The position numbers and the translations under genes were made by a program. 64,000 nucleotides of DNA from Imbricaverruca yamaguchii (Eukaryota; Arthropoda; Thecostraca; Neoverrucidae), in contig JAOTOL010001640.1 of NCBI GenBank assembly GCA_034440575.1, positions 3,449,501-3,513,500 on the forward strand, read 5' to 3'. The notes beneath the pieces are model-generated. The model had not been told where the DNA came from. It saw only the letters and a program-made list of their open reading frames with translations, and did no database searches. Shown here piece by piece: positions 118 through 63,058 of the stretch. The stretch's first letter is position 1, and the number at the start of each line of letters is the position of its first letter.

Positions 118-298
118 CCTGCGAGAGGACGGCTATGGCCTGCTCGGACCGGCCCAGCTTGTGCAGCAGACTGGAGAGCACCAGGCGCGCCTCGCTGTGG
201 TGCGGCGCCCGCTGCATCACCTGCTCGTAGGCGGGCACCGCCTCCTCGGCGCGGCCAGACTCGTTCAGGCACTCGGCCACGCGCAGCCACACTCCCGC
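118..298 (-). CDS. GTF3C3: GTF3C3 exon 10 (TPR), next to 51-bp array
   Basis: Acceptor CTGCCGCCAG then GCGGGAGTGTGG; it encodes AGVWLRVAECLNESGRAEEA and a second helix pair ending QAIAVLSQ, matching vertebrate VWLRHAECLKALGYMERAAE. The donor is CAGG|GTACGG. The acceptor and the first 11 exon bases are repeated about 40 times in the intron. Bases 1-117 may hold a further intron or exon; I cannot decide. Confidence 0.88.
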
Positions 299-2500
299 CT
301 GGCGGCAGACAGACAACGGCACGGCCTCGTCATAATGTCACACTCTGGCCTGGCGGCAGGCAGACAACGGCACGGCCTCGTCACAGTGTCACACTCCCGC
401 CTGGCGGCAGGCAGACAACGGCACGGCCTCGTCACAATGTCACACTCTGGCCTGGCGGCAGACAGGCAACGGCACGGCCTCGTCACAGTGTCACACTCTG
501 GCCTGGCAGCAGACAGACAACGGCACGGCCTCGTCGCAATGTCACACTCTAGCCTGGCGGCAGGCAGAACACGGCACGGTCTCGTCACAATGCCACACTC
601 CCGCCTGACAGCAGACAGACAACGGCACGGCCTCGTCACAGTGTCACACTCTGGCCTGGCAGCAGACAGACAACGGCACGGCCTCGTCACAATGCCACAC
701 TCCCGCCTGGCGGCAGACAGACAACGGCACGGCCTCGTCACATGTCACACTCTGGCCTGGCGGCAGAAGAAACGGCACGGCCTCGTCACAATGTCACACT
801 CTGGCCTGACGGCAGACAGACAGCGGCACGGCCTCGTCACAGTGCCACACTCCCGCCTGACAGCAGACAGACAACGGCACGGCCTCGTCACAGTGTCACA
901 CTCCCGCCTGACAGCAGACAGACAGCGGCACGGCCTCGTCACAATGCCACACTCTGGCCTGGCGGCAGGCAGACAACGGCACGGCCTCGTCACAGTGTCA
1001 CACTCCCGCCTGGCGGCAGGCAGACAACGGCACGGCCTCGTCACAGTGTCACACTCCCGCCTGGCGGCAGACAGACAACGGCACGGCCTCGTCGCAATGT
1101 CACACTCTGGCCTGACGGCAGACAGACAGCGGCACGGCCTCGTCACAGTGCCACACTCCCGCCTGACAGCAGACAGACAACGGCACGGCCTCGTCACAGT
1201 GTCACACTCCCGCCTGACAGCAGACAGACAGCGGCACGGCCTCGTCACAATGTCACACTCTGGCCTGGCGGCAGGCAGACAACGGCACGGCCTCGTCACA
1301 ATGTCACACTCCCGCCTGGCGGCAGGCAGACAACGGCACGGCCTCGTCACAATGTCACACTCTGGCCTGGCGGCAGGCAGACAACGGCACGGCCTCGTCA
1401 CAATGTCACACTCTGGCCTGGCGGCAGACAGACAACGGCACGGCCTCGTCACAATGTCACACTCTGGCCTGGCGGCAGACAGACAACGGCACGGCCTCGT
1501 CACAATGTAACACTCCCGCCTGACGGCAGGCAGACAACGGCACGGCCTCGTCACAGTGCCACACTCCCGCCTGGCGGCAGACAGACAACGGCACGGCCTC
1601 GTCACAATGTCACACTCCCGCCTGACGGCAGACAGACAACGGCACGGCCTCGTCACAATGTCACACTCTGGCCTGGCGGCAGACAGACAACGGCACGACC
1701 TCGTCACAATGTAACACTCCCGCCTGGCAGCAGACAGACAACGGCACGGCCTCGTCACAATGCCACACTCTGGCCTGACAGCAGACAGACAACGGCACGG
1801 CCTCGTCACAGTGTCACACTCTGGCCTGGCGGCAGACAGACAACGGCACGGCCTCGTCACATGTCACACTCTGGCCTGGCGGCAGACAGACAACGGCACG
1901 GCCTCGTCACAGTGTCACACTCCCGCCTGGCGGCAGACAGACAACGGCACGGCCTCGTCACAGTGTCACACTCCCGCCTGGCGGCAGACAGACAACGGCA
2001 CGGCCTCGTCACAGTGTCACACTCTGGCATGGCGGCAAACAGACAACGGCACAGCCTCGTCACAATGTCACACTCTAGCCTGGCGGCAGACAGACAACGG
2101 CACGGCCTTGTCACAGTGTCACACTCTGGCCTGACGGCAGACAGACAACGGCACGGCCTCGTCACAATGCCACACTCCTGCCTGGCGGCAGACAGACAAC
2201 GGCACGGCCTCGTCACAGTGTCACACTCTGGCCTGGCGGCAGACAGACAACGGCACGGCCTCGTCACATGTCACACTCTCGCCTGGCGGCAGACAGACAA
2301 CGGCACAGCCTCGTCACAATGTCACACTCTTGCCTGGCGGCGCACAAACACTGCCACACCAGCCTTATGTGGCAGCCCACAGACAATGCAACAGCCTCAT
2401 CACAATGCCACACTCCTACCTGTCGGCCCACAAAAAAATGCCACACTGGCCTTGTGTGGCAGCTCATAAACAATGCCCCAGCCTTGTCTGGCGACAGACA
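299..2500. repeat. 51-bp minisatellite copying the GTF3C3 exon 10 acceptor
   Basis: About 40 head-to-tail copies, degenerate beyond about 2340. On the gene strand every copy carries TCTGCCGCCAG followed by GCGGGAGTGT or GCCAGAGTGT: the real 3' splice site plus the first exon bases. The period is 17 codons, which makes long open frames on both strands that are not genes. Confidence 0.95.
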
Positions 2501-2988
2501 GACCATAGTAATGTTCGGCAAGATAACGATGAGTCAACAGTGCAGCCCGGTCTGATAACGGCGAGGAAACCAAGAAACCAAAATGAAATAATAGCACCGG
2601 TGATGATGGTGATGCCCACTCGAAGCGGCCATCACCACTCCCAGCCTCCAGCCTCCATTGGAGCACAATCCGCGCCAAATTGAGCGCCGACGAAAATTGA
2701 CACGAGTACGCTAGTTTATGAAGCCCATTTTGAGCCCTTGAAGTGGAGCAACTAAAAAGAACTTAGAATCTGATACCACGGACTCGGATAAAATACCGAA
2801 TATCTGACTGTATTACAAGAACGGTATCGGATGAATGAATCAATATCACTCCAAGAGAGATAGCATAGACCCACGTAATGCAATGTAGCCGACAATGCTT
2901 CATATTTCACGACTTTTCATGTTATGGGCTGAAAACGCCATTGGAGATTATAGGAAATATACAATAAACAATCACCAGCATAGCGTAC

Positions 2989-3135
2989 CAGGCAGAAATT
3001 CTCAGACTTGGTCAGAATGTTGAGCAACGACAAGGCGGTGTCGTAGTGTTTATGCTCCATCAGCGCCTCGGCAATGTCCAGGTATATATCGCCATACGCC
3101 TCCGGGTCGCACATCATCAGGCTCGGGATCAGGTC
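2989..3135 (-). CDS. GTF3C3: GTF3C3 exon 9 (TPR)
   Basis: Acceptor CTGTTTCAG, donor CTG|GTACGC. It encodes DLIPSLMMCDPEAYGDIYLD then IAEALMEHKHYDTALSLL, matching vertebrate EDMGDLYLDVAEAFLDVGEY. 49 codons, phase 0 at both ends. Confidence 0.9.
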
Positions 3136-12050: not shown

Positions 12051-12061
12051 ATCATTTCCAC

Positions 12062-17446: not shown

Positions 17447-17563
17447 GTGGACGCTTTCTGGAACGCCGCCAGCCCGAGCGTTCCCAGCATCGTGACGCTG
17501 GCCTGCTACGGCCGCTTCCTGCACGCCGCCATCGCCGGCTGGGAGGAGTGCGAGTGTGACAAG
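17447..17563 (+). CDS. FBXO47: FBXO47 exon 4, donor repeated in following array
   Basis: Acceptor CCGTTGCAG, donor GACAAG|GTGGGC. It encodes VPSIVTLACYGRFLHAAIAG then WEECECDK, matching vertebrate CYGMFLQTLTAGWDELEC. 39 codons, phase 0. Confidence 0.9.
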
Positions 17564-17948
17564 GTGGGCTGCCGGCTGGGAGGAGTGCGAGTGTGACAAG
17601 GTGGGCTGCCGGCTGGGAGGAGTGCGAGTGTGACAAGGTGGGCTGCCGGCTGGGAGGAGTGCGAGTGTGACAAGGTGGGCTGCCGGCTGGGAGGAGTGCG
17701 AGTGTGACAAGGTGGGCTGCCGGCTGGGAGGAGTGCGAGTGTGACAAGGTGGGCTGCCGGCTGGGAGGAGTGCGAGTGTGACAAGGTGGGCTGCCGGCTG
17801 GGAGGAGTGCGAGTGTGACAAGGTGGGCTGCCGGCTGGGAGGAGTGCGAGTGTGACAAGGTGGGCTGCCGGCTGGGAGGAGTGCGAGTGTGACAAGGTGG
17901 GCTGCCGGCTGGGAGGAGTGCGAGTGTGACAAGGTGGGCTGCCGGCGG
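17538..17948. repeat. 37-bp minisatellite copying the FBXO47 exon 4 donor
   Basis: About 11 nearly identical copies. The unit is the last 26 exon bases, ending GAGTGTGACAAG, plus GTGGGCTGCCG of the intron. Each copy has an intact donor identical to the real one. Confidence 0.96.
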
Positions 17949-18825
17949 GCCCCCGTGGGTCTCTGGGTCGTTTCGGGTCCTCTGCGCGTCCCGTAACAAA
18001 TATCTGTGGATCGCTTCAGATTCCCCACTCCACATGGAACACAGGAGTGCATATATGGCAATCTCAACGGACCAGTTGCTGGCTCGGATGGTTTTAGAGG
18101 GAAGGAAGTCGGCCTTATGGGGCGCAACTATATTCGTAGCCCAGCGGTGCCGTCCCACAACCGGGTTAAGTTATGTAGCACGGTATAGCCTAGTTGTGAA
18201 TCACCGGTACAAGGTGCTAAATGTGCCGCTTAGCCGAACACGCTTTTTCAGTTGCAAACACGTGCACGTGCCTTCATGTACAGAGAGTTGTTTATGTAAA
18301 AGTTGCGAGGTGCTTCTGCATGCCCCACACAACCAGGTGCTCTCTGCTGCTCCTTGAAGTATTGAAGTGTGCAAAGCGAGTAAAGTGTTTTGCGGTGTAT
18401 ATGCGCCTGACATTTGTGTGCTGATAGTGCCTTATACACAGTATGTACTGCAGATGTGTGAACGGTTTATGTTGTAAGTTGATACAGCTCTTAATTTTGT
18501 CATGGGTCTATGGATGAATGTGCGGATGAAAGTGTTCCAGTCTGTTTGTTACACTCCCTGGGACCCGTGAGCGTGGTTGGGTGACGTGCGCATCGCACTG
18601 GAGTTCCAACTCGTCGGAAGACATGCGTGTGTGCATCGGGAAAACCAGCGGGCCGACTGCGCTGCCTAGGAGGACACCGACGGCCCCGTCAACATCGGCA
18701 CACGCACGTGAAGCAGTCTATTGGTGGTCGGTAGATCGGTCCCATCTAAACCTCACCGCTGAACCGGATCTGGCCGAACTGGTGTCCTATCGATAGGGGT
18801 TCTAATCGAACCCGTTCTGTCGGTC

Positions 18826-19247
18826 GGAGAGGGGCAACTGGGCAGGTGTCCGGCCGGTGGGAGAGGGTGCATCTGGGCAGGTGTTCCGACGGTCGGAGAG
18901 GGGCAACTGGGCAGGTGTCCGGCCAGTGGGAGAGGGTGCATCTGGGCAGGTGTCTGGCCGGTGGGAGAGGGTGCACCTGGGCAGGTGTCTGGCCGGTGGG
19001 AGAGGATGCACCTGGGCAGGTGTCCGGCCAGTGGGAGAGGGTGCATCTGGGCTGGTGCTCCGACGATCAGCGATTTGGCCGGGCAGGTGTTCTGTCGCTC
19101 CGAGATCCGACCCGACACGGTCGGCGAGGGGGATATCTGGACAGGTGTTGCGTTGCTCCAGGACCTGACCCGACAGGTCAGTCCTGTCCCGGTCACCGGT
19201 CGGTGTTCGGGGCGGAAGTGTGTGGCCTGACCCGCCATCCCGGGCAG
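18826..19247. repeat. ~36-bp minisatellite copying the FBXO47 exon 5 acceptor
   Basis: About seven good copies to 19060, then degenerate ones. Each holds CTGGGCAG followed by GTGTCCGG or GTGTTCCG; the true acceptor is CGGGCAG|GTGTTCCG. Confidence 0.9.
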
Positions 19248-42949: not shown

Positions 42950-43915
42950 CTGCTGTACTGCTGTGTACCACCAGACGATACCGCAACTGGTCATACACCG
43001 CCTGACAGTGCTGGGACAGGCTGTCTGCTGTACTGCTGTATACCACCTGGCGATACCACAACTGGTCATACACCGCCTGGCAATGCCGGGACAGGCTGTC
43101 TGATGTACTGCTGTATATCACCTGGCGATACCGCAACTGGTCATACACCGCCTGACAGTGCTGGGACAGGCTGTCTGCTGTACTGCTGTATACCACCTGG
43201 CGATACCGCAACTGGTCATACACCGCCTGACAGTGCTGGGACAGGCTGTCTGCTGTACTGCTGTATACCACCTGGCGATACCGCAACTGGTCATACACCG
43301 CCTGACAGTGCTGGGACAGGCTGTCTGCTGTACTGCTGTATACCACCTGGCGATACCGCAACTGGTCATACACCGCCTGATAATGCTGGGACATGTCTGC
43401 TATACTGCTGTATACCACCTGGCGATACCGCAACTGGTCATACACCGCTGTCTACTATACAGGCTGTCTGCTATACTGCTGTATACCACCTGGCGATACC
43501 GCAACTGGTCATACACCGCATGACAACGCTGGGACCTGTCTGCTATACTGATGTATACCACCTGGCGATACCACAACCGGTCATACACCGCCTGATAATG
43601 CTGGGACAGGCTTTACTGCTGTATACCACCTGGCGATACCGCAACTGGTCATACACCGCCTGACAACACTGGGACCTGTCTGCTATACTGATGTATACCA
43701 CCTGGCGATACCGCAACCGGTCATACACCGCCTGATAATGCTGGGACAGGCTTACTGCTGTATACCACCTGGCGATACCGCAACTGGTCATACACCGCCT
43801 GACAGTGCTGGGACAGGCTGTCTGCTGTACTGCTGTATACCACCTGGCGATACCGCAACTGGTCATACACCGCCTGACAATACTGGGACCTGTCCGCTAT
43901 ACTGCTGTGTACCAC
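42950..43915. repeat. 78-bp minisatellite derived from the start of MYCBP2 exon 11
   Basis: About twelve units. On the gene strand each includes CTGTCCCAGCACTGTCAG, GCGGTGTATGACCAGTTGC and GGTATCGCCAG|GTGG. The 26-codon period gives an open frame, but it more likely repeats the acceptor and exon start. Confidence 0.93.
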
Positions 43916-44400
43916 CAGACGACACCGGGGCAGTTTATATACCGTCTGACGACACTAGGACAGGTTATATAGAATCTGACCTCACAGGGATAGTCAATAT
44001 ACCATCTGGCGACACCGGGACAGGATACATACCACCTGGTGACACTGGAACATGTTATATAAGATTTGACGTCACCGGGACAGGCTACATACCACCTAAC
44101 GTCACCGGGACAGGCTATATACCACCTGACGTCACCGGGACAGTGCATATACCACCTGACGACACTGGAACATGTTACATAAGATTTGACGTCACCGAGA
44201 CAGGCTATATACCACCTGACGTCACCGGGACAGGCTACATACCACCTAACGTCACCGGGACAGGCTATATACCACCTGACGTCACCGGGACAGGCTATAT
44301 ACCATCTGACGCCATCGGAACAGGTTGTATACTATCTGGCAGTATTGGGACATGCCACAAATCACCTACCAATACCAGGCCAGGCCGAAAACCGGACAGG
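43916..44400. repeat. ~30-bp minisatellite
   Basis: About sixteen units of GTCACCGGGACAGGCTATAT plus ACCACCTGAC, abutting the 78-bp array and sharing its ATACCACCTGGCGA-like word, so it may be an old derivative of it. Confidence 0.92.
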
Positions 44401-44999: not shown

Positions 45000-45504
45000 C
45001 TGGGTAAACCTCACCTGGACCACCACCAGTCGTGACCCAGCTCACCTGAGCCACCACCAGTCGTGACCCAGCTCACCTGAGCAGTCACCAGTCGTGACCC
45101 AGCTCAACTGAGCCGCCACCAGTCGTGACCCAGTACTGAGCCCCCCAGCTCCCAGCCCACCTGAGCCGTCACCAGTCGTGACCCAGCTCACCTGAGCCGC
45201 CACCAGTCGTGACCCAGCTCACCTGAGCCGCCACCAGTCGTGACCCAGCTCACTCTGCCAGCTCACCAGGCCACCAGTCGTGACCCAGCTCACCTGAGCC
45301 GCCACCAGTCGTGACCCAGCTCACCTGAGCCGTCACCAGTCGTGACCCAGCTCACCTGAGCCGCCACCAGTCGTGACCCAGCTCACCTGAGCCGCCACCA
45401 GTCGTGACCCAGCTCACCTGAGCCGCCACCAGTCGTGACCCAGCTCACCTGAGCCTACCGCAGGCGCGGTGTCGCCTAAGCCGTCACCAGTCGTGACCAG
45501 CTAC
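45000..45504. repeat. 31-bp minisatellite copying the MYCBP2 exon 10 donor
   Basis: About sixteen units of GGTGGCGGCTCAG|GTGAGCTGG on the gene strand. The true exon end is TGTGGCGGCTCAG|GTAGCTGG: the genuine donor has lost two bases present in the copies. Confidence 0.93.
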
Positions 45505-45979
45505 CTGAGCCGCCACAGCGACCAGCTATGCCGGACACGGGCGGCGCTCGCAGGCGGGTGTCGCCTCCGTCGCCGCCGGCCAGCAGCACCACCTGGCGCA
45601 CGCGCAGGCTGTTGTCGGGCCCCTTCAGCTCGAGCCGGACGTGGCGCGCGTCGGCCGGCACGGCGGCCACCACCCAGCCGGCGTGGCGCGCCTCGACGGC
45701 GGCCGCGCGCAGCCGCACCACCTCGTCGGCCGACCGGCCGGCGCGGAACGTCACCGACGACACCTTGGTCTGCAGGTCGCGCACGTTGTCCACGTGCACG
45801 CCGACGGCGCACAGGGCGGCCGCCGGCAGCGCGGCCGTCACCACCTTGCTGCGGTTGCGGTCCTCGTCGCCGCTCTCCCAGAACGTCTCGGTGCTGCCGT
45901 CCGTGAGCGACTCGAGCAGCGCCGGCCGCGACGACGTCTCCAGCACCGCCTGCGCCGTCACGTCCACCAGGGTGGTCAC
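45505..45979 (-). CDS. MYCBP2: MYCBP2 exon 10 in window, DOC/APC10 domain
   Basis: 158 codons. Acceptor CGGTGCAG, donor CTCAG|GTAGCT. It encodes RPALLESLTDGSTETFWESG, DEDRNRSKVV, VHVDNVRDLQTKVSSVTFRA, RHAGWVVAAVP and RLELKGPDNSLRVRQVVLL. These match the vertebrate DOC fold (LTDGSTETFWESGDEDRNKT and IELKGPENTLRVRQVKVL). Confidence 0.97.
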
Positions 45980-46643
45980 CTGCACCGCCGCCTGCCGGAC
46001 ACAGACATGGGGAGGTTACCCGTACTGCTGCCTGCCAGACACAGAACGGGGGTGGTCACCTGCACCGCCGCCTGCCGGACACAGACATGGGGAGGTTACC
46101 TGTACTGCTGCCTGCCAGACACAGCCACGGGGGGAGGTCACCTGTACCACTGCCTGCCGGACACAGACACGGGGGAGGTTACCCGTACTGCTGCCTGCCG
46201 GACACAGACACAGGGGAGGTTACCTGCACCACTGCCCGACAGACACAGCCACGGGGGAGGTCACCTGTACTGCTGCCTGCCGGACACACACACGGGGGAG
46301 GTTACGCGTACTGCTGCCTGCCAGATACACACACGGGGGAGGTTACCTGCACCACTGCTCGACAGACACACACACGGGGGAGGTTACCCGTACTGCTGCC
46401 TGCCAGACACAGACACGGGGGAGGTCACCTGCACCGCCGCCTGCCGGACACATACACGGGGGAGGTTACCCGTACTGCTGCCTGCCAGACACAGTCAGGG
46501 GGAGGTTACCTGCACCACTGCCCGACAGACACAGCCACGGGGGAGGTCACCTGTACCACTGCCTGCCAGACACAGCCACGGGGGAGGTCACCTGTATTGC
46601 TGCCTCCCGGACACAGACACGGGGGAGGTCACCAGAGGTCACC
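45980..46643. repeat. ~60-bp compound minisatellite copying the MYCBP2 exon 10 acceptor
   Basis: Units contain GTCCGGCAGGCGGCGGTGCAG|GTGACC or its variant GGCAGTGGTACAG|GTGACC. The true acceptor is GGCGGCGGTGCAG|GTGACCACC. Degenerate units continue at 46830-46990 beyond a SINE. Confidence 0.93.
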
Positions 46644-46826: not shown

Positions 46827-47399
46827 GGCCACCCGTACCACTGCCTGCAAGAGATACAGGGGGTCACCTGTCCCGCTGCATGCTAGACACGGAGAGGTTA
46901 CCTGTACCGCTGAGTGCCAAACGCAGGGAGAGATCACCTGCACCACCGCCTGCCCGTGACAGACACAGGAAGAGGTCACCTGTACCGCTGCTTACTGAAC
47001 AGAGTTCAGCCGCCAGTCTCTGTCTAGCAGGAGGAAGTGATCAAGGTGGAGTGCTGACCCTTGCTCTTGTCAGCTTCCCTGCCTAGTCCCCAGTCCCATA
47101 AACGGGTATCTAACGTAGCTCCGCCTCACGAACAAGTGGTCAAAATTGTATCCTTACTTAGGCTTACCAGGGAGTTCATCCTCATTATACACTCAGTAGG
47201 TCCCCATTATAGCATCAGCTCAATCAACTGATTCTCACTACATCCATATCCAAACCAGCGGATCGCCACTACACACCCAGCCTCACAAGCGAGTTCCCAC
47301 CATACCCATCATTATCAGCGGGTCCCCACCACACCCTGGTCCTCACAAACTGGTCTCCACTGTACCCTGGTATTCACCAGTGGATCCTCACTGCATCTT

Positions 47400-48806
47400 C
47401 AGCGTCACCAACGGGTTTCCACCACACCCTGGTCCTCACCACGCCCTGGTCCTCACCAGCTGGTCCTCACCACGCCCTGGTCCTCACCATCAGGTCCTCA
47501 CCACACCATGATCCTCACCAGTGGGTCTTCACCACGCTCTGGTCCTCACCAGCGGGTCTCCACGACACCATGGTCCTCACCATCAGGTCCTCACCACACC
47601 ATGATCCTCACCAGTGGGTCTTCACCACGCCCTGGTCCTCACCAGCGGGTCTCCACGACACCATGGTCCTCACCATCAGGTCTCCACCACACCCTGGTCC
47701 TCACCACACCCTGTTCCTCACCAGCGGGTCTCCACCACACCCTGGTCCTCACCATCAGGTCCTCACCACACCCTGATCCTCACCAGCGGGTCCTCACCAC
47801 ACCCTGGTCCTCACCATCAGGTCCTCACCACACCCTGGTCCTCACCATCAGGTCCTCACCACACCCTGATCCTCACCAGTGGGTCCTCACCACACCCAGG
47901 TCCTCACCATCAGGTCCTCACCACACCCTGATCCTCACCAGCGGGTCCTCACCACACCCAGGTCCTCACCATCAGGTCCTCACCACACCCTGGTCCTCAC
48001 CATCAGGTCCTCACCACACCCTGATCCTCACCAGCGGGTCCTCACCACACCCTGGTCCTCACCAGCGGGTCCTCACCACACCCTGATCCTCACCAGCGGG
48101 TCCTCACCACACCCTGATCCTCACCAGCGGGTCCTCACCACACCCAGGTCCTCACCAGCGGGTCCTCACCACACCCTGATCCTCACCAGCGGGTCCTCAC
48201 CACACCCTGGTCCTCACCACACCCCAGCCTCACCACACCCTGGTCCTCACCAGCGGGTCCTCACCACACCCCAGCCTCACCAGCGGGTCTCCACCACACC
48301 CTGGTCCTCACCAGCGGGTCTACACCACACCCTGATCCTCACCAGCGGGTCCTCACCACACCCTGTTCCTCACCAGCGGGTCCCCACGACACCCTGGTCC
48401 TCACCAGCGGGTCTCCACCACACCCTGGTCCTCACCAGCGGGTCCTCACCACACCCTGAGCCTCACCAGCGGGTCCTCACCACCCGGGTCCTCACCACAC
48501 CCTGGTCCTCACCAGCGGGTCCTCACCACACCCCAGCCTCACCATCAGGTCCTCACCACACCCTGGTCCTCACCATCAGGTCCTCACCACACCCTGGTCC
48601 TCACCATCAGGTCCTCACCACACCCTGAGCCTCACCAGCGGGTCCTCACCACACCCTGGTCCTCACCACACCCTGGTCCTCACCACACCCTGGTCCTCAC
48701 CATCAGGTCCTCACCAGCGGGTCTCCATCACACCCTGGTCCTCACCATCAGGTCCTCACCACACCCTGGTCCTCACCATCAGGTCCTCACCACACCCCAG
48801 CCTCAC
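47400..48806. repeat. 31-bp minisatellite copying the MYCBP2 exon 9 donor (~44 copies)
   Basis: The gene-strand unit is GTGGTGAGGACCCGCTG|GTGAGGACCAGGGT. The true exon end is GGCGACCCGCTG|GTGAGGCTGG. Units with CTGATGG in place of CCGCTGG form a regular higher-order pattern. Confidence 0.96.
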
Positions 48807-48963
48807 CAGCGGGTCGCCGCTCAGCGTCGGCTGCTGTGACGCAGTGAGGACGTCCTCCGGCGCGGCCTCGTCGGAGCCGGCCAGGATGCTGCTGATGTTG
48901 GTGAACACGTGACTGCGGTGTAGGAAGCCGTGGTCGGCCGGCACGAACCGCAGGCCCCAGCAC
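48807..48963 (-). CDS. MYCBP2: MYCBP2 exon 9 in window
   Basis: Acceptor CCGTCGCCAG, donor CCGCTG|GTGAGG. It encodes CWGLRFVPADHGFLHRSHVF then TNISSILAGSDEAAPEDV, a helical segment just before the DOC domain. It enters in phase 2. Confidence 0.88.
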
Positions 48964-49119: not shown

Positions 49120-49835
49120 TCGGCTCTTTTTCTAATAATGTAGTCGAGCTTTCGAACGATTTACTTTTATCAGCAATCAGTTGAGGCACACATTTTTGCC
49201 GTGTTGGGCGCCATTGATGTTTATCGACCTTCAAGTAGCTGACTTCAGAAATACGCCAGAAGGGGCGATTGGTGAATCGCGCGCTGTGTGCTATTTTCGT
49301 ATCAGCAAACTAGGACATGAGCTCGTTTTGGTTTTGGGTGCTTGGTTTGACGAGCAAAACTTAGGATACCACTTGGGCTATAGAGCTTATCGATCACGGT
49401 GGATCTGATGTGACCTACAGAGGTGCACGTCACACTACACGCAGAAGTACGCTTGTGACTCGGCATCGCATGAAACACTCACCACAACATGAAAACGTAA
49501 ATGCAAAGCTTTCCTTAGAAGTTATAACACAGTTCGGCATTGCGTGACCTTCACATCTTTTCAACTGGTAACAGGATATGTTGGTGAGCAATTTTCCCTG
49601 CGACAGAATGTGTGAATGTGTGTGAATGTGTGTGGGTGTGTGAGGGGTGTGGTGTGGGAAGGTCACCTGACAGAGAACGGGTGTGGAGGTCCATCTTGCA
49701 GCGCAAATGGATGTTGGAGGACCACCACTCAGATGAGTGTCGCAGATCGATCTGACAGGGAAAATGGGGGACGGCGGGTCCCGGAAGACCACCTTGTACA
49801 GGAACGTCGAAGACCATCTGACTGCAGCGGGGGTG
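49120..49835. other. intron, no gene seen
   Basis: Unique MYCBP2 intron with a short TG-rich run (GTGTGAATGTGTGTG) near 49610. Confidence 0.6.
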
Positions 49836-49839
49836 AGAT

Positions 49840-50205
49840 GTGAGCCTCACCTGACGGCCATCAGCTGATAGCAGCAGCATCAGGTCGGAGAAGATCTGAC
49901 AGTAGCGGGGGTGGTGGGGAGCCTCACCTGACGGCCATCAGCTGACAGCAGCAGCATCAGGTCGGAGAAGATCTGACAGTAGCGGGGGTGGTGGGGGAGC
50001 CTCACCTGACGGCCATCAGCTGACAGCAGCAGCATCAGGTCGGAGACCTGACAGTAGCGGGGGTGGTGGGGGAGCCTCACCTGACGGCCATCAGCTGACA
50101 GCAGCAGCATCAGGTCGGAGAGGATCTGACAGTAGCGGGGGTGGTGGGGGAGCCTCACCTGACGGCCATCAGCTGACAGTGGCGGGGGTGGGATGTGAGC
50201 CTCAC
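49840..50205. repeat. ~74-bp minisatellite copying the 3' end and donor of MYCBP2 exon 8
   Basis: Five copies. Gene-strand units read TCTCCGACCTGATGCTGCTG, then CAGCTGATGGCCGTCAG|GTGAGG, then CTCCCCACCACCCCCGC. They match the last ~50 exon bases with an internal deletion. Confidence 0.94.
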
Positions 50206-50357
50206 CTGACGGCCATCAGCTGCAGACTGGAGCCGGCCGGCAGCAGCGGCATCAGGTCGGAGATGGTCTGCAGCAGGTTGTGGAAGGCGGCCGGCAGCGG
50301 CGTGCTGCCCGCCAGCGGCACGTCCGCCTGCGGGTGCTCCAGCACGGTCGGGTCCTC
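50206..50357 (-). CDS. MYCBP2: MYCBP2 exon 8 in window, flanked by arrays on both sides
   Basis: Acceptor GTGCTGTGCAG, donor GTCAG|GTGAGG. It encodes EDPTVLEHPQADVPLAGSTP then FHNLLQTISDLMPLLPAGSS and LQLMAV, leading into R-CWGLRF. Phase 0 in, 2 out. Confidence 0.88.
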
Positions 50358-52240
50358 CTGCACAGCACGGACACGGTCCTTACATGAGCACAGTCCTTAC
50401 ATCAGCACGGTCGGATCCTGCACAACACGGAAACGGTCCTTACATCAGCACGGTCGGGCCCTCCTGCACAACACGGACACGGCCCTTACGGTCGGATCCT
50501 CCTGCACAACGCGGACACGGCCCTTACATCAGCACGGTCGGGCCCTCCTGCACAACACGGACACGGTCCTTTACGGTCGGGTCCTCCTGCACAACGCGGA
50601 CACGGCCCTTACATCAGCACGGTCGGGCCCTCCTGCACAACACGGACACGGTCCTTACATCAGCACGGTCGGGCCCTCCTGCACAACACGGAAACGGTCC
50701 TTACATCAGCACGGCTCCTGCACAACACACGGTCCTTCGGCCTCCTGCACAACACGGACACGGTCCTTACATCAGCACGGTCGGGTCCTCCTGCACAACA
50801 CGGACACGGTCCTTACATCAGCACGGTCGGGCCCTCCTGCACAACACGGACACGGTCCTTACATCAGCACGGTCGGGCCCTCCTGCACAACACGGACACG
50901 GTCCTTACATCAGCACGGTCGGGCCCTCCTGCACAACACGGACACGGTCCTTACATCAGCACGGTCGGGCCCTCCTGCACAACACGGACACGGTCCTCAC
51001 ATCAGCACGGTCGAGCCCTCCTGCACAACACGGACACGGCCCTTACATCAGCACGGTCGGGTCCTCCTGCACAACACGGACACGGTCCTTACATCAGCAC
51101 GGTCGGAGCCCTCCTGCACAACACGGGACACGGTCCTTACATCAGCACGGTCGAGCCCTCCTGCACAACACGGGAACGGTCCTTACATCAGCACGGTCGG
51201 GCCCTCCTGCACAACACGGGACACGGTCCTTACATCAGCACGGTCGAGCCCTCCTGCACAACACGGGACACGGTCCTTACATCAGCACGGTCGGGCCCTC
51301 CTGCACAACACGGACACGGTCCTTACGGTCGGGGATCCTCCTGCACAACACGGACACGGTCCTTACATCAGCACGGTCGGATCCTCCTGCACAACACGGA
51401 CACGGCCCTTACATCAGCACGGTCGGGCCCTCCTGCACAACACGGACACGGTCCTTACATCAGCACGGTCGGGTCCTCCTGCACAACACGGACACGGTCC
51501 TTACATCAGCACGGTCGGGTCCTCCTGCACAACATGGACACGGACCTTACATCAGCACGGTCAGATCCTGCACAACACGGACACGGTCCTTACATCAGCA
51601 CGGTCGGGTCCTCCTGCACAACACGGACACGGTCCTTACATCAGCACGGTCGGGTCCTCCTGCACAACACGGACACGGTCCTTACATCAGCACGGTCGGG
51701 TCCTCCTGCACAGCACGGACACGGTCCTTACATCAGCACGGTCGGGTCCTCCTGCACAACACAGGAACGGTCCTTACATCAGCACGGTCGGGTCCTCCTG
51801 CACAACACGGAAACGGTCCTTACATCAGCACGGTCGGGTCCTGTACAGCACGGATACGGTCCTTACATCAGCACGGTCGGGCTCTCCTGCACAACACGGA
51901 CACGGTCCTTACATCAGCACGGTCGAGTCCTCCTGCACAGCACGGACACGGTCCTTACATCAGCACGGTCGGGTCCTGTACAGCACGGATACGGTCCTTA
52001 CATCAGCACGGTCGGGTCCTCCTGCACAACACGGACCGCCTTCTCAGCACAATACGGACACGGTCCTTACATCAGCACGGTCGGGCCCTCCTGCACAACA
52101 CGGACACGGCCCTTACATCAGCACGGTCGGGTCCTGCACAACACGGACACGGTCCTTACATCAGCACGGTCGGGTCCTGCACAACACGGACACGGTCCTT
52201 ACATCAGCACGGTCGGGCCCTCCTGCACAACACGGACACA
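50358..52240. repeat. 45-bp minisatellite copying the MYCBP2 exon 8 acceptor (~41 copies)
   Basis: Gene-strand units are GTGTTGTGCAG|GAGGACCCGACCGTGCTG plus an intronic TGTAAGGACCGTGTCC. The real site is GTGCTGTGCAG|GAGGACCCGACC. The 45-base period creates a 949-codon artefact frame on the plus strand. Confidence 0.97.
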
Positions 52241-52333
52241 GCCCCGGCGCCACCACGGTCCCCGTCGGCACGGCGCAATACGGGGCGCTCCTGACATCGG
52301 GTCGGTCCTGCCATCGCTTCCAACTAACAGCCT

Positions 52334-54040: not shown

Positions 54041-54539
54041 CTGGCGGGTCAGCACGGGTCACGGGTGAGGTCAATAGTGTGCAGTTGATAGCTATGGCCA
54101 AATAGTTGACGTCACATGTGGGCAGTCGGTGCTGGAGGTCATCTGCCTGAGCTTCCGATAACAATAGACAACATGCAGTACATGTCTTCGCGGGCTGCCA
54201 AGATAGCCCAGCTGCGGTGGGTCCACAAGTTCCGTCATGGGTGGTGCCCGAAATTTTGCCCGCAGCAAGGAGTCACATGAGGTATTCTGTTTGTGCTGTT
54301 AGTGAAGCAAGTTCGTGCTGAGGTATTCTGACCCCCAGGTCGAACTTAAGGTGTTCTGAAGGAGCCTCTAAAATGAGGATCCGGCTACGGGGTTCTATCT
54401 ATGGAGTGCTGACCCCACGGTTAGTGGGAGAGACCATTGTGGAGGTTCTACTGGATCATATGAGTTGCAGATAGAGCTCCAGTAGTCCTCTGACCTTCAA
54501 GTCGGTCTGTAGGGTTCTACAAGAGTTCTACAGTGTTCC

Positions 54540-54905
54540 TGACCTGCAGGTCGGCTGTGGGGCCTGTAAGGTTCTGTAGTATCTCTGACCTGCAGATCGG
54601 GCTGTGGGGCTTGGTAAGGTTCTGCGGCGCTCCTGACCTGCAGGTCGGTCTGTGGGGTCTGGTAAGGTTATACAGCGCTCCTGACCCACAGGTCGGGCTG
54701 TGGGGCCTGACCTGCAGGTCGGTCTGTGGGGTCTGGTAAGGTCATACAGCGCTCCTGACCCACAAGTCGGGCTGTGGGGCCTGACCTGCAGGTCTGGCTG
54801 TGAGTCTGGTAAGGTCATACAGCGCTCCTGACCCACAGGTCGGGCTGTGGGACCTGACCCGCAGGTCTGGCTGTGAGTCTGGTAAGGTCATACAGCGCTC
54901 CTGAC
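54540..54905. repeat. ~45-65-bp minisatellite copying the MYCBP2 exon 5 donor
   Basis: About seven units. Gene-strand core CAGCCCGACCTGCAG|GTCAGG; true exon end GGCCAGCCCGACCTGCAG|GTCAGGAGCG. Confidence 0.93.
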
Positions 54906-55196
54906 CTGCAGGTCGGGCTGGCCGGCCGCCAGGTTGAGCGCCGTGCGCAGCTGCTGCAGCCGCGCCGACGGCCGGCCCAGGAAGCCGGCCGGCGCGGCGG
55001 CGCCGTCTGGCACCCGCTCGGTGGCGCTGGGCGTGCGCCGGCGCCGCATCATGATGACGCGGCCGTCCCAGCCGGGCGACGTGCCCACCGACACGGAGCG
55101 GTGGTAGGCGCGCCCGCCGGCCGGGCTGGCAGAGCACGAGGCCGGCTCGTGCGGCGGCCCGTCGTCCGCCGGCTCAGAGTGGCTCGTGTCGGGGAT
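54906..55196 (-). CDS. MYCBP2: MYCBP2 exon 5 in window (disordered, Arg/Ser-rich)
   Basis: Acceptor CTGTCGTCGTCAG, donor CTGCAG|GTCAGG. It encodes YHRSVSVGTSPGWDGRVIMM then RRRRTPSATERVPDG and LQQLRTALNLAAGQPDLQ. 97 codons, phase 0. Low complexity; exon status rests on phase and splice sites. Confidence 0.82.
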
Positions 55197-55214: not shown

Positions 55215-55345
55215 CGGCGGACATCACTCACCAGTGACATCGCTCACCAGTGACATCACTCACCAGTGACATCACTCACCAGTGACATCACCCACCAGTG
55301 ACATCACTCACCAGTGACATCACTCACCAGTGACATCGCTCACCA
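55215..55345. repeat. 16-bp minisatellite
   Basis: About eight units of CAGTGACATCACTCAC. On the gene strand each holds CTG|GTGAGT, a full donor consensus, though the nearby real site is an acceptor. Confidence 0.93.
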
Positions 55346-55624
55346 CTGCCGCGTCGCCATTCAGTGACGCCGCGCGTCACCGAGTCACTGCCAGCTCACC
55401 AGGCTGCCAGCACTCGACACACTCGCGTGAGCTATTCCAACGATGCCGTTTGCAACATCTTGCAGATTCAGCGAACATTCAGTAATGCAAAGAATGGCAT
55501 CAAACGTAATAGAACATGTGAACTTGTTACTTGGCCAGTTTAGACAACGCCCGAAAATACGCGTCGCCAGGGTGTACGGGATGGAATCGTATACAAGCCA
55601 TTTGCACAGACGACAAGCCACCGA

Positions 55625-55997
55625 CTCACCCAGACGGAGACGGACCACTCACATAGGCGGAGACGGACCACTCACACAGACGGAGACGGACCACTCACAC
55701 AGACGGAGACGGACCACTCACACGGACAGAGACGGCCGACTCACACAGACAGAGACGGACCACTCACACAGACAGAGACGGACCACTCACACGGACAGAG
55801 ACGGACCACTCACACGGACAGGAATGGATCGCTCACACAGACAGAGAGGGCCGACTCACACAGGCGGAGACGGACCACTCACACAGACAGAGGTGGACCA
55901 CTCACACAGACAGAGACGGACCACTCACACAGGCGGAGACGGACCACTCACACAGACAGAGACGGACCACTCACACAGACAGAGACGGACCACTCAC
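55625..55997. repeat. 23-bp minisatellite copying the MYCBP2 exon 4 donor
   Basis: About sixteen units of CGTCTCTGTCTGT|GTGAGTGGTC on the gene strand; the real exon end is CGTCTCCGCCTGT|GTGAGTGGTC. Confidence 0.95.
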
Positions 55998-56376
55998 ACA
56001 GGCGGAGACGGGTCTGGCGGCGGAGCGGCGCGGCTGCCGGCGCGGCGGCTGCAGCTGCTCGGCGTCGCTCTGGCGGCGCAGCTCGGCCGACAGCTCCTCC
56101 TCCTTGAGCCGGCGCAGGTGCGTCTGCTGGCCGCCCAGCGTGTGCAGACACTGGAAGGCGACGGCCGGGAACGGGCCGCCGCCGGCGCCGGCGCCGCCGC
56201 CGCCGGACGGCTGCGAGGCGCGCAGCTCGGCCGCGCGCGACGCCGCGTCGTCGGTGGCCAGGTCCAGCAGGAACACGGCGTTGCGGTGGATCACGCGGTG
56301 CGTCTCGCACTCGGCCGGCGAGCGTAGCGGCGCCGCGCGCTTCTTGCTCTTCTTGCGCCGGCACACGTCGGCCGGC
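55998..56376 (-). CDS. MYCBP2: MYCBP2 exon 4 in window (basic linker)
   Basis: Acceptor CGTCCACAG, donor GCCTGT|GTGAGT. It encodes DVCRRKKSKKRAAPLRSPAE then HRVIHRNAVFLLDLATDD, a Gly/Ala run and LKEEELSAELRRQSDAEQL. Phase 2 in, 0 out. Confidence 0.85.
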
Positions 56377-58934: not shown

Positions 58935-59247
58935 AAGAGCCAAGCGGGTACTGCTGGCCAGACCCACCTCTGTCCGACGGTACTCAGGTACCGCTCTCTA
59001 CAGCCGGTACAGAGCGGGTACTGCTGGCCAGACCCACCTCTGTCCGACGGTACTCAGGTACCGCTCTCTACAGCCGGTACAGAGCGGGTACTGCTGGCCA
59101 GACCCACCTCTGTCCGACGGTACTCAGGTACCGCTCTCTACAGCCGGTACAGAGCGGGTACTGTTGGCCAGACCCACCTCTGTCCGACGGTACTCAGGTA
59201 CCGCTCTCTACAGCCGGTACAGAGCGGGTACTGCTGGCCAGACCCAC
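58935..59247. repeat. 70-bp minisatellite copying the end and donor of MYCBP2 exon 3
   Basis: Nearly perfect copies (four to five). The unit holds the last ~60 exon bases (CCAGCAGTACCCGCTCTG, AGAGAGCGGTACCTGAG) and GGACAGAG|GTGGGTCTGG. Confidence 0.96.
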
Positions 59248-59486
59248 CTCTGTCCGACGGTACTCAGGTACCGCTCTCTACAGCCGGTACAGAGCGGGTA
59301 CTGCTGGCCGGAGACGGCGCCGCACGGGTCCAGCGATGACGCCGCCTCTCCGTACACTCCCGACTGGAGGTAGGCGTGGCCGCCGCTGGCGCCGCCGCAG
59401 CCGGGGTGCTGCTGCTGCAGGTGGTCCAGCTGCAGCCCGGGCGTCAGCGGCCAGTCGCACAGGTCACAGCCGGCCACGCCGTGTCT
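59248..59486 (-). CDS. MYCBP2: MYCBP2 exon 3 in window (zinc-binding HGVAGC block)
   Basis: Acceptor GTGTTGCAG, donor CAGAG|GTGGGT. It encodes RHGVAGCDLCDWPLTPGLQL then HLQQQHPGCGGASGGHAYL and QYPLCTGCRERYL, parallel to the vertebrate HGVAGCELCD, NHPGCGLPAEGYGYLSSG and YLLCEKCRAKY blocks. Arrays on both sides. Confidence 0.93.
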
Positions 59487-59890
59487 CTGCAACACACCTC
59501 AGGTCACCACACCGTGTCCCTGTAATGTCACCTCAGGTCACCACATCGGGTCCATGTAACACACCTCAGGTCACCACACAGTGTCCCTGTAATACACCTC
59601 AGGTTACCACACCATGTCCATGTAACACACCTCAGGTCACCACACTGTGTCCCTGTAATACACCTCAGGTCACCACACCGGATCCCTGCAACATACCTCA
59701 AGTCATCACACCGAGTCCCTGCAACACACTTCAGGTCATCACACCGTATCCCTGTGACAGCGCCACACACCCCAGGTCACCACCCCCTGCCCCTGTAACA
59801 CACTTCAGGTCATCACACCGTGTCCCTGTGGTATTGCCACATACCTCAGGTCGCCACATCATGTCCCTAACATATACCTCTCGGGGCATT
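59487..59890. repeat. ~35-bp minisatellite copying the MYCBP2 exon 3 acceptor
   Basis: About ten units of GTGTGTTACAG|GGACACGGTGTGG on the gene strand; the true site is GTGTGTTGCAG|AGACACGGCGTGG. Confidence 0.93.
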
Positions 59891-60084: not shown

Positions 60085-60563
60085 ATGAGCACCACCACAC
60101 CTGAGAAGTCCGCCCGGTGTCCCCGGGTCTCACTTACCACGGACAGTTATGTACCGCCGCCGCACCTGAGAAGTCCGCCCGGTGTCCCCGGGTCTCGCCT
60201 ACCACGGACACATGCACCGCCGTCACACCTGAGAAGGCCGCCCGGTATCCCCGGGTCTCGCCTACCACGGAAACTGAGGTACCGCCGTCACATCTGAGAA
60301 GGCCGCCCGGTGTCCCCGGGTCTCGCCTACCACGGACAGTTATGTACCGCCGCCGCACCTGAGAAGGCCGCCCGGTGTCCCCGGGTCTCGCCTACCACGG
60401 ACAGTTATGTACCGCCGCCGCACCTGAGAAGGCCGCCCGGTGTCCCCGGGTCTCACCTACCCCGGACAGTTATGTACCGCCGCCGCACCTGAGAAGGCCG
60501 CCCGGTGTCCCCGGGTCTCGCCTACCCCGGACACTGGCGTACCGCCCCGGCGCGCCTCCGCAC
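60085..60563. repeat. 65-bp minisatellite copying the MYCBP2 exon 2 donor
   Basis: About eight units with GCCTTCTCAG|GTGCGGCGGC on the gene strand; the true exon end is TCCTCTCAG|GTGCGGAGGC. Confidence 0.95.
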
Positions 60564-60731
60564 CTGAGAGGACGACTGCTGGTCGACATCGTCTTGCGAC
60601 TGGCGAGCCGACCGCCCCAGCTCCTGGTCGGTGTCCAGGTCGGAGCGTTGTTTCTTGGCGCGTTTGTCGGGCGTGTGCCGCGGCCGGTCTGGTCGGCGCG
60701 GCCGTGGTGTGCTGGGACTGGGCAGCACCGC
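60564..60731 (-). CDS. MYCBP2: MYCBP2 exon 2 in window (disordered linker)
   Basis: Acceptor CTGTCGGCAG, donor TCTCAG|GTGCGG. It encodes HTPDKRAKKQRSDLDTDQEL then QSQDDVDQQSSSQ. 56 codons, phase 0, charged and low in hydrophobics. It has arrays on both sides. Confidence 0.8.
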
Positions 60732-62090
60732 CTGCCGACAGGTAACCATACTACAACCGGGCAGCACCGCCTGCCGACAGGTAACCATACTACAACTGGG
60801 CAGCACCGCCTGCCGACAGCCGACACGTGGTCTCACCTGGCCCGGCCGGCACACTCTGAGTCACGACAGCCCGCCGTCAGGTAACCATACTACAACTGGG
60901 CAGCACCGCCTGCCGACAGCCGACACGTGGTCTCACCTGGCCCGGCCGGCCCACTCTGAGTCACGACCGCCCGCCGTCAGGTAACCATACTACAACTGGG
61001 CAGCACCGCCTGCCGACAGCCGACACGTGGTCTCACCTGGCCCGGCCGGCCCACTCTGAGTCACGACAGCCCGCCGTCAGGTAACCATACTACAACTGGG
61101 CAGCACCGCCTGCCGACAGCCGACACGTGGTCTCATCAGGCCCGGCCGACCCACTCTGAGTCACGACCGCCCGCCGTTAGGTAACCATACTACAACTGGG
61201 CAGCACCGCCTGCCGACAGCCGACACGTGGTCTCATCAGGCCCGGCCGGCACACTCTGAGTCACGACCGCCGCCGTTAGGCTACCATACAACCTGGCAGT
61301 ACCGCCTGCCGACAGCCGACACGTGGTCTCACCAGGCCCGGCCGGCACACTCTGAGTCACGACCGCCGCCGTTAGGCTACCATACAACCTGGCAGTACCG
61401 CCTGCCGACAGCCGACACGTGGTCTCATCAGGCCCGGCCGACCCACTCTGAGTCACGACCGCCCGCCGTTAGGTAACCATACTACAACTGGGCAGCACCG
61501 CCTGCCGACAGCCGACACGTGGTCTCACCTGGCCCGGCCGGCCCACTCTGAGTCACGACCGCCCGCCGTTAGGTAACCATACTACAACTGGGCAGCACCG
61601 CCTGCCGACAGCCGACACGTGGTCTTATCAGGCCCGGCCGGCCCACTCTGAGTCACGACCGCCGCCGTTAGGCTAACCATACAACCTGGGCAGTACCGCC
61701 TGCCGACAGCCGACACGTGGTCCCATCAGGCCCGGCCGCCCCACTCTGAGTCACGACCGCCCGCCGTTAGGTAACCATACTACAACTGGGCAGCACCGCC
61801 TGCCGACAGCCGACACGTGGTCTTATCAGGCTCGGCCGGCCCACTCTGAGTCACAACCGCGCGCCGTTAGGTTACCATACTATCGGCAGTACCGCCTGCC
61901 GACAGCCGACACGTGGTCTCATCAGGCCCGGCCGCCCCACTCTGAGTCACGACCGCCCGCCGTTAGGTAACCATACTACAACTGGGCAGTACCGCCTGCC
62001 GACAGCCGACACGTGGTCTCACCAGGCCCGGCCGACCCACTCTGAGTCACGACCGCCCGCCGTTAGGTAACCATACTACAACTGGGCAGA
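60732..62090. repeat. ~97-bp minisatellite copying the MYCBP2 exon 2 acceptor (~14 copies)
   Basis: Each unit has GCTGTCGGCAG|GCGGTGCTGCCCAG on the gene strand, the acceptor and first 14 bases of exon 2. The rest includes CACTCTGAGTCACGACCGC. Confidence 0.95.
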
Positions 62091-62689
62091 GTGGTATCTC
62101 TCTCGGTGGGCGAGTAATTATTTCTTAGGAAAGTAGTGATACCTTATCCCATCCAAAACTTTAATACAGTGGCAATGTACACTTTGAACATTTTTTTCAC
62201 ACGACGGAGACACGCCTAACTAGGGAGGGTGGACGCCGAAGTCACATCCAGCCAACAGAGAACATATCTTAACTTCTCAACAGCCGGATACAACACCCGG
62301 CAGAGCATGCACCCCAGCAAGCGTAACCAGACAGCCCACCAGAGAACATAGTCTAATTTCTCAACAGCTGGATAGAATACCAAGCAGAGCGTGTACCCCA
62401 ACAGGCGTAACCGGCCAGCCCAGTAGCCGCGCGATCTAGGCGGATGTCTGCCCAGACTGAACAGTCAAACCGACCGACCTGACAGCCAGGCCGATACGGT
62501 CAGTGCGGCGGTCTCGCCCGACCAGCCGCTGTATTTCTGGGCACAAAAATACAGCGGCAGAAAGCGCCTTCACCGTCTGAAGCAACCTGCTGATACATGT
62601 CTCCGAATCTGGATTGGATTGCTGGATAATAAGCCTCATAGCCGTACTAAGGTAATAAGGTAATAATTCCCTGCTTTTCACTGATCTGC

Positions 62690-62948
62690 TGGGCAATAAG
62701 CTTGACCCGTAATTCTCGGCTGGGCAATAACTCCCTCATTTCACTCACCTCCTGAACAATAAGCCTTGGACCTGTAATGATCTGCTAGGCAACATGTGCC
62801 GGCCCCGTACTGTCCTGCTGGGCAGTACGGGGCCGGCCCCGTACTGTCCCTGCGGTTCACTGACCTTCTAGGCAATAAGTCCCTGCGGTCCACTGGCCTG
62901 TTGTTTACTGACCTACCACCTGGCAAGAAGTGCCGACCCCGTACTGAC
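62690..62948. repeat. degenerate repeat echoing the MYCBP2 exon 1 donor
   Basis: Several units of CTTATTGCCCAGCAG followed by GTCAGTA, ATCAGTG or ATCATTA on the gene strand; the real exon end is CTTATTGCCCAGCAG|GTCAGT. Only some copies keep GT. Confidence 0.82.
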
Positions 62949-63058
62949 CTGCTGGGCAATAAGGCCCGCCGAGACGGCACGGAGACCGTCCCAGATGGCC
63001 GCCAGGTACTGCAGAGACGGCATCGGGTCCGGCTCAGACGCCCCGCTCTCCAGCAACG
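62949..63058 (-). CDS. MYCBP2: MYCBP2 exon 1 in window, upstream edge uncertain
   Basis: The donor is CAGCAG|GTCAGT. It encodes [20 protein letters not shown] then GLIAQQ, a helical segment consistent with the armadillo-like part of MYCBP2. The acceptor is not resolved because the exon runs into a 21-bp repeat in the same open frame. Confidence 0.72.

What the first reader, a model, noticed from the sequence alone, without database searches (positions are those of the whole stretch)
118..63058. Minisatellites seeded on splice junctions at about two dozen exon boundaries in three unrelated genes
Seen directly: at GTF3C3 exon 10, FBXO47 exons 4-7 and most MYCBP2 exons, the neighbouring intron holds a tandem array whose monomer contains the exact exon/intron junction of that exon. 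Monomers differ completely between exons (periods 23-97 bp), so this is not one satellite family spreading; each junction has been copied in place. Acceptors and donors are both affected, and five exons on both sides. Known background: tandem duplication of an AGGT-containing segment is a proposed route to intron gain, and decoy splice sites can promote intron retention. Inference: this genome has an active process that preferentially duplicates splice junctions, or selection tolerates duplication only where the spliced product is unchanged.
Basis: partly seen in the sequence, partly recalled or inferred. Interest (0 to 1): 0.92.

Follow-up and report, generated by a model that had tools for sequence, protein, structure and literature searches.

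The report
Minisatellites grown from splice junctions
In a barnacle-like genome, about a third of the exon edges examined in three unrelated genes have been copied, splice site included, into the neighbouring intron, mostly as long tandem repeats, which suggests that introns here grow outward from exon edges.

Summary
Exon models against Pollicipes (barnacle) orthologues give 67 exon edges in GTF3C3, FBXO47 and MYCBP2. A 24-base junction (12 intron + 12 exon bases) recurs in its own intron at 23 of 66 scored edges (score 13 or more; 0.2 expected from 2145 junction/other-intron pairs; 19 of 59 without the edges I moved by hand). Donors (12 of 33) and acceptors (11 of 33) are hit equally. Of 30 intronic arrays of 100 bp or more, 18 contain a junction, against 2.5 expected for uniform and 4.5 for GC-matched seeding (P<5e-6); 27 of 30 end within 75 bp of an exon edge. 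Selection tolerance alone would need ancestral introns of about 80 bp, so seeding at exon edges is truly in excess. In 5 of 6 introns hit at both ends the two monomers are no more alike than other array pairs, against the AGGT intron-gain model. Decoy splice sites show neutral conservation. Best reading: recurrent local tandem duplication concentrated at GC-rich exon edges, filtered by selection inside exons. Junction-specific targeting cannot be separated from exon-centred duplication with these data. No genome-wide or RNA test was possible.

The parts
288..2484 (-). GTF3C3 acceptor array (exon edge 298), 51-bp monomer, about 40 copies, reaching 11 bp into the exon
   Evidence: (own score 24)
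118..298 (-). GTF3C3 exon whose acceptor seeded the array
17534..17946 (+). FBXO47 exon 4 donor array (edge 17563), 37-bp monomer = 30 exon + 7 intron bases, 11.2 copies, 100% match
   Evidence: score 24
18821..19062 (+). FBXO47 exon 5 acceptor-like array, 35-bp, diverged, 185 bp from the edge at 19248; not counted as a junction array in the null test
   Evidence: (score 13)
20105..20996 (+). FBXO47 exon 6 acceptor array (edge 20986), 30-bp, about 30 copies
   Evidence: score 22
60720..62089 (-). MYCBP2 exon 2 acceptor array (edge 60731), 39/100-bp units
   Evidence: score 24
62674..62948 (-). MYCBP2 exon 1 donor (edge 62949): four degenerate junction copies in the flanking intron
   Evidence: (score 20)
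60098..60533 (-). MYCBP2 exon 2 donor array (edge 60564, moved by hand), 65-bp; ends 30 bp short of the edge
   Evidence: (score 14), (6 of 7 copies keep GT)
59474..59857 (-). MYCBP2 exon 3 acceptor array (edge 59486, moved by hand), 33-bp
   Evidence: score 16
58943..59309 (-). MYCBP2 exon 3 donor array (edge 59248), 70-bp monomer, reaching 62 bp into the exon, 5.2 copies, 99%
   Evidence: (score 24)
55624..56011 (-). MYCBP2 exon 4 donor array (edge 55998, moved by hand), 23-bp
   Evidence: score 24
54537..54920 (-). MYCBP2 exon 5 donor array (edge 54906), 26/47/73-bp units
   Evidence: (score 20)
50372..52316 (-). MYCBP2 exon 8 acceptor array (edge 50357), 46-bp, 37 decoy copies found
   Evidence: (score 24)
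49816..50222 (-). MYCBP2 exon 8 donor array (edge 50206), 78-bp
   Evidence: score 24
47319..48808 (-). MYCBP2 exon 9 donor array (edge 48807), 31-bp, about 44 copies
   Evidence: (score 22)
45970..46633 (-). MYCBP2 exon 10 acceptor array (edge 45991), 41-bp
   Evidence: score 24
45010..45516 (-). MYCBP2 exon 10 donor array (edge 45505, moved by hand), 31-bp
   Evidence: (score 20)
42894..43927 (-). MYCBP2 exon 11 acceptor array (edge 42896, moved by hand), 75-bp; intron half matches, only 3 exon bases; not counted as a junction array
   Evidence: (score 12)
40888..41075 (-). MYCBP2 exon 12 donor array (edge 41067), 35-bp
   Evidence: score 16
40171..40483 (-). MYCBP2 exon 13 acceptor array (edge 40177), 33/71-bp
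   Evidence: score 13
33707..35255 (-). MYCBP2 exon 16 donor array (edge 35239), 24-bp, about 60 copies
   Evidence: (score 22)
29031..29800 (-). MYCBP2 exon 19 donor array (edge 29794), 39-bp
   Evidence: score 19
41480..41570 (-). single extra copy of the MYCBP2 exon 12 acceptor with a piece of exon 12 (extent by eye)
   Evidence: score 18; match at 41533

Best explanation
In this crustacean genome, segments of roughly 20-100 bp are tandemly duplicated again and again, most often at GC-rich exon edges. When the segment straddles a splice junction, the extra copies land on the intron side and are removed with the intron, provided the exon-adjacent copy of the site is still used. The protein is then unchanged and the array is free to expand, from about 3 to about 60 copies, by slippage or unequal exchange. 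Duplications inside exons are removed by selection, and deep-intron seeds are rare. The result is introns that grow outward from their exon edges. Shown: the junction-containing arrays, their excess over uniform and GC-matched seeding, and neutral conservation of the decoy sites; the coding origin of the copied exon piece is shown by eye at many edges. Inferred: the duplication mechanism, the mode of expansion, and use of the exon-adjacent site.
For: 23 of 66 edges match their own intron at 13 or more, against 0.2 expected from 2145 swapped pairs; 19 of 59 without hand-moved edges. 18 of 30 arrays hold a junction, 2.5 uniform / 4.5 GC-matched expected, P<5e-6 in 200,000 draws; 2.6 / 4.6 expected after removing dispersed repeats. 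Worked out, observed versus expected falls with distance: junction-straddling 18 vs 2.5 (GC-matched 4.5), other arrays within 75 bp 9 vs 7.0 (9.4), remote 3 vs 20.5 (16.1). Non-array intron GC falls from 0.64 in the first 10 bp to about 0.46-0.48 beyond 160 bp; exons 0.69, arrays 0.61. At many edges the repeated exon piece encodes residues shared with Pollicipes (for example the FBXO47 exon 4 end and the MYCBP2 exon 16 end; compared by eye), so the exon is the source. Junction-array periods are not frame-biased (8 of 20 multiples of 3), whereas 7 of 9 weak exonic repeat rows have TRF periods that are multiples of 3. Decoy AG/GT conservation is at mean percentile 0.500 over the 13 of 20 arrays with enough aligned copies (range 0.03-1.00).
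Against: The GC-matched null leaves a fourfold excess unexplained, so GC content is not the whole cause. Within MYCBP2 the exon-flank GC of hit and unhit edges does not differ (0.718 vs 0.696, P=0.40). Only one 64-kb window, picked because a reader found it striking, was examined; arrays within one gene may not be independent. Five of the hand-moved edges (MYCBP2 2D, 3A, 4D, 10D, 11A) were chosen with the array in view. No RNA evidence shows which copy is spliced.
Confidence: 0.57

Rival explanations
1. A process tied to the splice junction itself (for example breaks or R-loops linked to transcription or splicing at exon-intron boundaries) duplicates junctions specifically.
For: Junction-straddling seeds are 4.0 to 7.3 times expectation while other arrays within 75 bp are about 1.0 to 1.3 times (worked out). 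Donors and acceptors are equally hit (12 of 33, 11 of 33).
Against: Nine of 30 arrays sit beside an edge without counting as junction arrays (one of them, at MYCBP2 11A, reaches 3 bp into the exon). Where an array overlaps the exon, the overlap ranges from 2 to 62 bp by TRF ends, so there is no fixed register. Exon interiors are censored by selection, so the peak at the junction may be only the edge of an exon-centred distribution.
Confidence: 0.25
2. Uniform seeding in formerly very short introns plus purifying selection in exons: when introns were about 60-80 bp long most random 20-100 bp segments would span a junction.
For: With ancestral introns capped at 60 or 80 bp the uniform null gives 18.2 or 15.4 of 30, compatible with the 18 seen (P=0.62, 0.18); 100 bp is borderline (13.2, P=0.037).
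Against: Caps of 150 bp or more are rejected (P=0.001 or less). Residual introns after removing arrays and dispersed repeats have a median of 716 bp and a minimum of 103. Pollicipes introns average 2,077 bp (PMC8917513, passages) and Balanus improvisus introns 706 bp, thought an underestimate by its authors (PMC8270832, passages); these are genome means, not these introns.
Confidence: 0.12
3. The arrays came first and exon ends were captured from them, or the introns themselves were created from AGGT-containing tandem duplications.
For: Known in principle (Rogers model and the potato RdRp case, PMC4974935, abstract and passages). In one of six introns (FBXO47 intron 4) the two monomers are in the top 2.9% of array pairs.
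Against: Donor and acceptor monomers of the same intron are no more alike than other array pairs in 5 of 6 introns. Many repeated exon pieces encode residues shared with Pollicipes (by eye).
Confidence: 0.04
4. The decoy splice sites are kept by selection and regulate splicing or intron retention.
For: 333 of 365 decoy copies in 20 arrays keep AG or GT.
Against: With alignments not anchored on the junction, the splice dinucleotide is on average conserved no more than other non-CpG positions (mean percentile 0.500, 13 of 20 arrays).
Confidence: 0.02

Closest known systems
Human IFI6 (6-16) minisatellite providing multiple splice donor sites (Turri et al. 1995, NAR; known here only from a passage and the reference in PMC4526556)
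   Same: A minisatellite whose repeat unit carries a splice donor, so that copies can serve as splice sites.
   Different: One gene and one donor there; here 18 arrays over donors and acceptors of three genes, each with its own monomer.
Tandem repeats at exon-intron boundaries in human segmental duplications (Genome Biol 2009 10:R137, PMC2812944; abstract and passages)
   Same: Tandem repeats at exon-intron boundaries that change splicing and gene structure.
   Different: There 27 intron modifications among recently duplicated genes; here about a third of the edges examined in three unrelated genes in one 64-kb window.
[quoted passage not shown] potato RdRp, PMC4974935, abstract and passages; Zhuo et al. 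2007 seen only in reference lists)
   Same: Tandem duplication across an intron-exon boundary that inherits splicing signals.
   Different: No sign here of a new intron; in 5 of 6 introns hit at both ends donor and acceptor sides carry unrelated arrays; existing introns become longer.

Membership tests
Minisatellite (VNTR) | Head-to-tail units of roughly 10-100 bp | tested here: met
   TRF; periods 23-100 bp at junctions
Minisatellite (VNTR) | Copy number varies between individuals | not testable with these tools
   one haplotype only
Minisatellite supplying splice sites (IFI6 type) | Repeat unit contains a splice site of the adjacent exon | tested here: met
Minisatellite supplying splice sites (IFI6 type) | Copies in the array are used as alternative splice sites in mRNA | not testable with these tools
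   no RNA data
Intron gain by AGGT tandem duplication | Donor and acceptor of the intron come from copies of one segment | tested here: not met
   5 of 6 introns at background; FBXO47 intron 4 in the top 2.9% of pairs
Intron gain by AGGT tandem duplication | Intron absent from relatives | not tested
   no relatives' gene structures at hand
Introner or other mobile element | Same sequence inserted at many sites | tested here: not met
   in 2145 junction/other-intron pairs the maximum score is 15 and the 99th percentile 11

The most novel reading that the evidence does not exclude
Exon-intron junctions are hotspots of tandem duplication in this lineage: a junction-linked process, perhaps coupled to transcription or splicing, repeatedly copies splice junctions and is a main route by which its introns lengthen, leaving tens to hundreds of unused decoy splice sites per gene.
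Probability: 0.3. Interest if true: 0.85.

Novelty: new variant of a known kind. Interest (0 to 1): 0.62.

Why it matters
If general, introns in this lineage lengthen largely by amplification of their own splice junctions, giving a measurable route of intron growth and a natural experiment on how the spliceosome copes with tens of near-perfect decoys (365 candidate decoy copies counted in 20 arrays). It would also supply many raw cases for models of intron gain and alternative splicing by tandem duplication, which now rest on few examples.

Tried and rejected
An apparent excess conservation of decoy AG/GT (0.952 vs 0.911; 0.972 vs 0.932) was an effect of anchoring the copies on the junction; with alignments anchored elsewhere the mean percentile is 0.500 (13 of 20 arrays, the other seven had too few copies). 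Looking for microhomology at seed ends was dropped without a test, because array ends carry partial copies. Dispersed repeats do not explain the long residual introns (1461 bp of 47,034).

Edges changed by hand. GTF3C3: last donor moved by one base. FBXO47: automatic exons 7 and 8 merged. MYCBP2: automatic exons 1, 4, 14 and 18 dropped, 6 and 7 merged, and seven edges moved (2D, 3A, 4D, 5A, 10D, 11A, 13D in the final numbering); at 2D, 3A, 4D, 10D and 11A the array was in view when I chose. Without the seven, 19 of 59 edges score 13 or more. The acceptor of MYCBP2 exon 1 was left out of all counts because array 63059-63476 may be coding. One edge of 67 (the last GTF3C3 donor) has no intron in the window and was not scored against its own intron. 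For the null, arrays were TRF rows of period 15 or more merged within 60 bp, with 42894-44332 split by hand (41 intronic arrays); the 30 of at least 100 bp and 2.3 copies were counted, and MYCBP2 11A and FBXO47 18821 were not counted as junction arrays. Four other settings of the null gave the same answer. Literature: the listings of nine searches showed no report of many junction-seeded arrays in a crustacean; subscription journals are mostly missing from that library.
Full report
What the window is. The best MYCBP2 relative among 727 matches is from the goose barnacle Pollicipes pollicipes (83% identity over the RING exon). For FBXO47 and GTF3C3 the only match found in each search is also from Pollicipes (59% and 62%), and all three are listed on a contig of the same length (44,118,722 bp), probably one contig. 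The window is therefore most likely from another barnacle or close thecostracan, with the gene neighbourhood kept (inference). GTF3C3 (minus strand, about 8.7 to 0.1 kb), FBXO47 (plus, 15.3-26.1 kb) and the C-terminal part of MYCBP2 (minus, about 63 to 28.5 kb) are present. The MYCBP2 C-terminal end also matches two solved MYCBP2 sequences in the PDB, and Pfam finds the FBXO47 repeat domain and a RING finger.

Exon map. A splice-aware alignment of the Pollicipes proteins gave automatic models without frameshifts or in-frame stops. I corrected ambiguous MYCBP2 exons by eye; the changes are listed in Tried and rejected. In total 67 exon edges and 33 introns were used; the acceptor of the first MYCBP2 exon was left out.

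Test of the observation. The 24 bases around each junction (12 intron, 12 exon) were fitted to the edge's own intron, without its terminal 12 bases, and to the other introns. Scores fall into two groups: 26 of 66 edges score 11-24, the other 40 score 8 or less. Among 2145 swapped pairs the 99th percentile is 11 and the maximum 15; 23 edges at 13 or more compare with 0.2 expected, and 19 of 59 remain without hand-moved edges. Without gaps, 17 of 67 edges have two or more intron-side copies of the 12+12 junction and none has exon-side copies; one of the five window shapes tried gave exon-side hits at one edge. With the uncorrected automatic edges it is 20 of 80, and 4 of 80 exon-side, all at edges later dropped or moved. 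Donors and acceptors are hit alike (12 of 33, 11 of 33), but genes differ: MYCBP2 19 of 38, FBXO47 3 of 16, GTF3C3 1 of 12.

Is it more than chance placement? Thirty intronic arrays of 100 bp or more were compared with seeds of the same length placed in introns whose arrays were collapsed to one monomer. 18 of 30 contain a junction, against 2.5 (uniform) or 4.5 (GC-matched); 27 of 30 end within 75 bp of an exon edge, against 9.5 or 13.9; no draw in 200,000 reached any of these values. Removing dispersed repeats changes little (2.6 and 4.6). Equality would need ancestral introns of about 80 bp or less, with 100 bp borderline, which the present residual introns (median 716 bp, minimum 103) and the 2,077-bp mean intron of Pollicipes (PMC8917513, passages) make unlikely. 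Limits: the window was chosen because it looked striking, arrays in one gene may share causes, some edges were set by hand, and no genome-wide check could be made.

What kind of process. Observed over expected falls stepwise away from the exon: junction-straddling 7.3 (GC-matched 4.0), within 75 bp but not straddling 1.3 (1.0), remote 0.15 (0.19), all worked out. One of the nine arrays in the middle zone (MYCBP2 11A) reaches 3 bp into the exon, and two of the three remote ones are related to an edge (18821 to the FBXO47 exon 5 acceptor; 41577 to the stretch beside exon 12). Intron GC falls in the same direction, and hit edges have more GC-rich exon flanks (0.710 vs 0.640, P=0.001; within MYCBP2 alone P=0.40). 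Because coding exons cannot keep such arrays, a process centred on exons and one centred on junctions predict the same picture here. Where an array overlaps its exon the overlap varies from 2 to 62 bp, so there is no fixed register as a mobile element or site-specific enzyme would leave. Identity among copies at junction arrays runs from about 78% to 100%, so seeding has probably recurred over time; FBXO47 exon 4 (37 bp, 11.2 copies, 100%) and MYCBP2 exon 3 donor (70 bp, 99%) look youngest.

Direction of copying and fate of decoys. At many edges the repeated exon piece encodes residues shared with Pollicipes (by eye), so the exon is the source; at some (for example MYCBP2 2D, 4D and 9D) the residues are not clearly shared. 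Periods at junctions are multiples of 3 in 8 of 20, as expected without coding constraint. 333 of 365 decoys keep AG or GT, but with alignments not anchored on the junction their conservation is average (mean percentile 0.500 over 13 of 20 arrays, single arrays from 0.03 to 1.00). So there is no sign that decoys are maintained or being disabled. Six introns are hit at both ends (score 12 or more); in five the two monomers are as different as other array pairs, in FBXO47 intron 4 they are somewhat alike (top 2.9%), so one AGGT duplication does not explain these introns.

Comparison. Single or scattered cases are known: the human IFI6 minisatellite with several splice donors (cited in PMC4526556), repeats at exon-intron boundaries of human duplicated genes (PMC2812944) and a potato duplication across an intron-exon boundary (PMC4974935). 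New here is the density: about a third of the edges examined over three genes, both site types, each edge with its own monomer.

Verdict.

Noticed in passing
window 45460-45570 (minus): The end of MYCBP2 exon 10, conserved in the other arthropod proteins looked at, is not readable in one frame; pieces resembling it occur twice beside the donor array. Array-driven damage, an assembly error or a missed exon are all possible.
   Followed up: partly
window 63059-63476: A 21-bp (7-codon) array in open frame just before MYCBP2 exon 1 of this model; it may be a coding repeat rather than an intronic one.
   Followed up: partly
window 55220-55345: A 16-bp array with a consensus donor sequence in its unit, 23 bp from the MYCBP2 exon 5 acceptor; neither edge of that exon's upstream intron explains it.
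   Followed up: partly
window 8022-8194, 9784-9934, 13134-13313, 19404-19559, 31432-31589, 35599-35755, 42201-42358, 46638-46826, 53661-53839: Stretches of about 150-190 bp that match elsewhere in the window; whether they form one family was not checked. One (42292-42352) scores as a tRNA in Rfam just above the gathering score, though ARAGORN finds none, so perhaps a tRNA-derived SINE (label recalled).
   Followed up: partly
window 12050-12802 (plus): Two adjoining open frames that look like the end of a LINE reverse transcriptase (label recalled, not searched).
   Followed up: no
window 26240-26583 and 27965-28452: Minisatellites also lie about 106 bp beyond the FBXO47 coding end and 57 bp beyond the MYCBP2 coding end, so the last exons seem flanked too.
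   Followed up: no
window 8683: GTF3C3 exon 1 of the Pollicipes model is preceded by an acceptor-like sequence, so upstream exons may lie between 9 and 15 kb.
   Followed up: no
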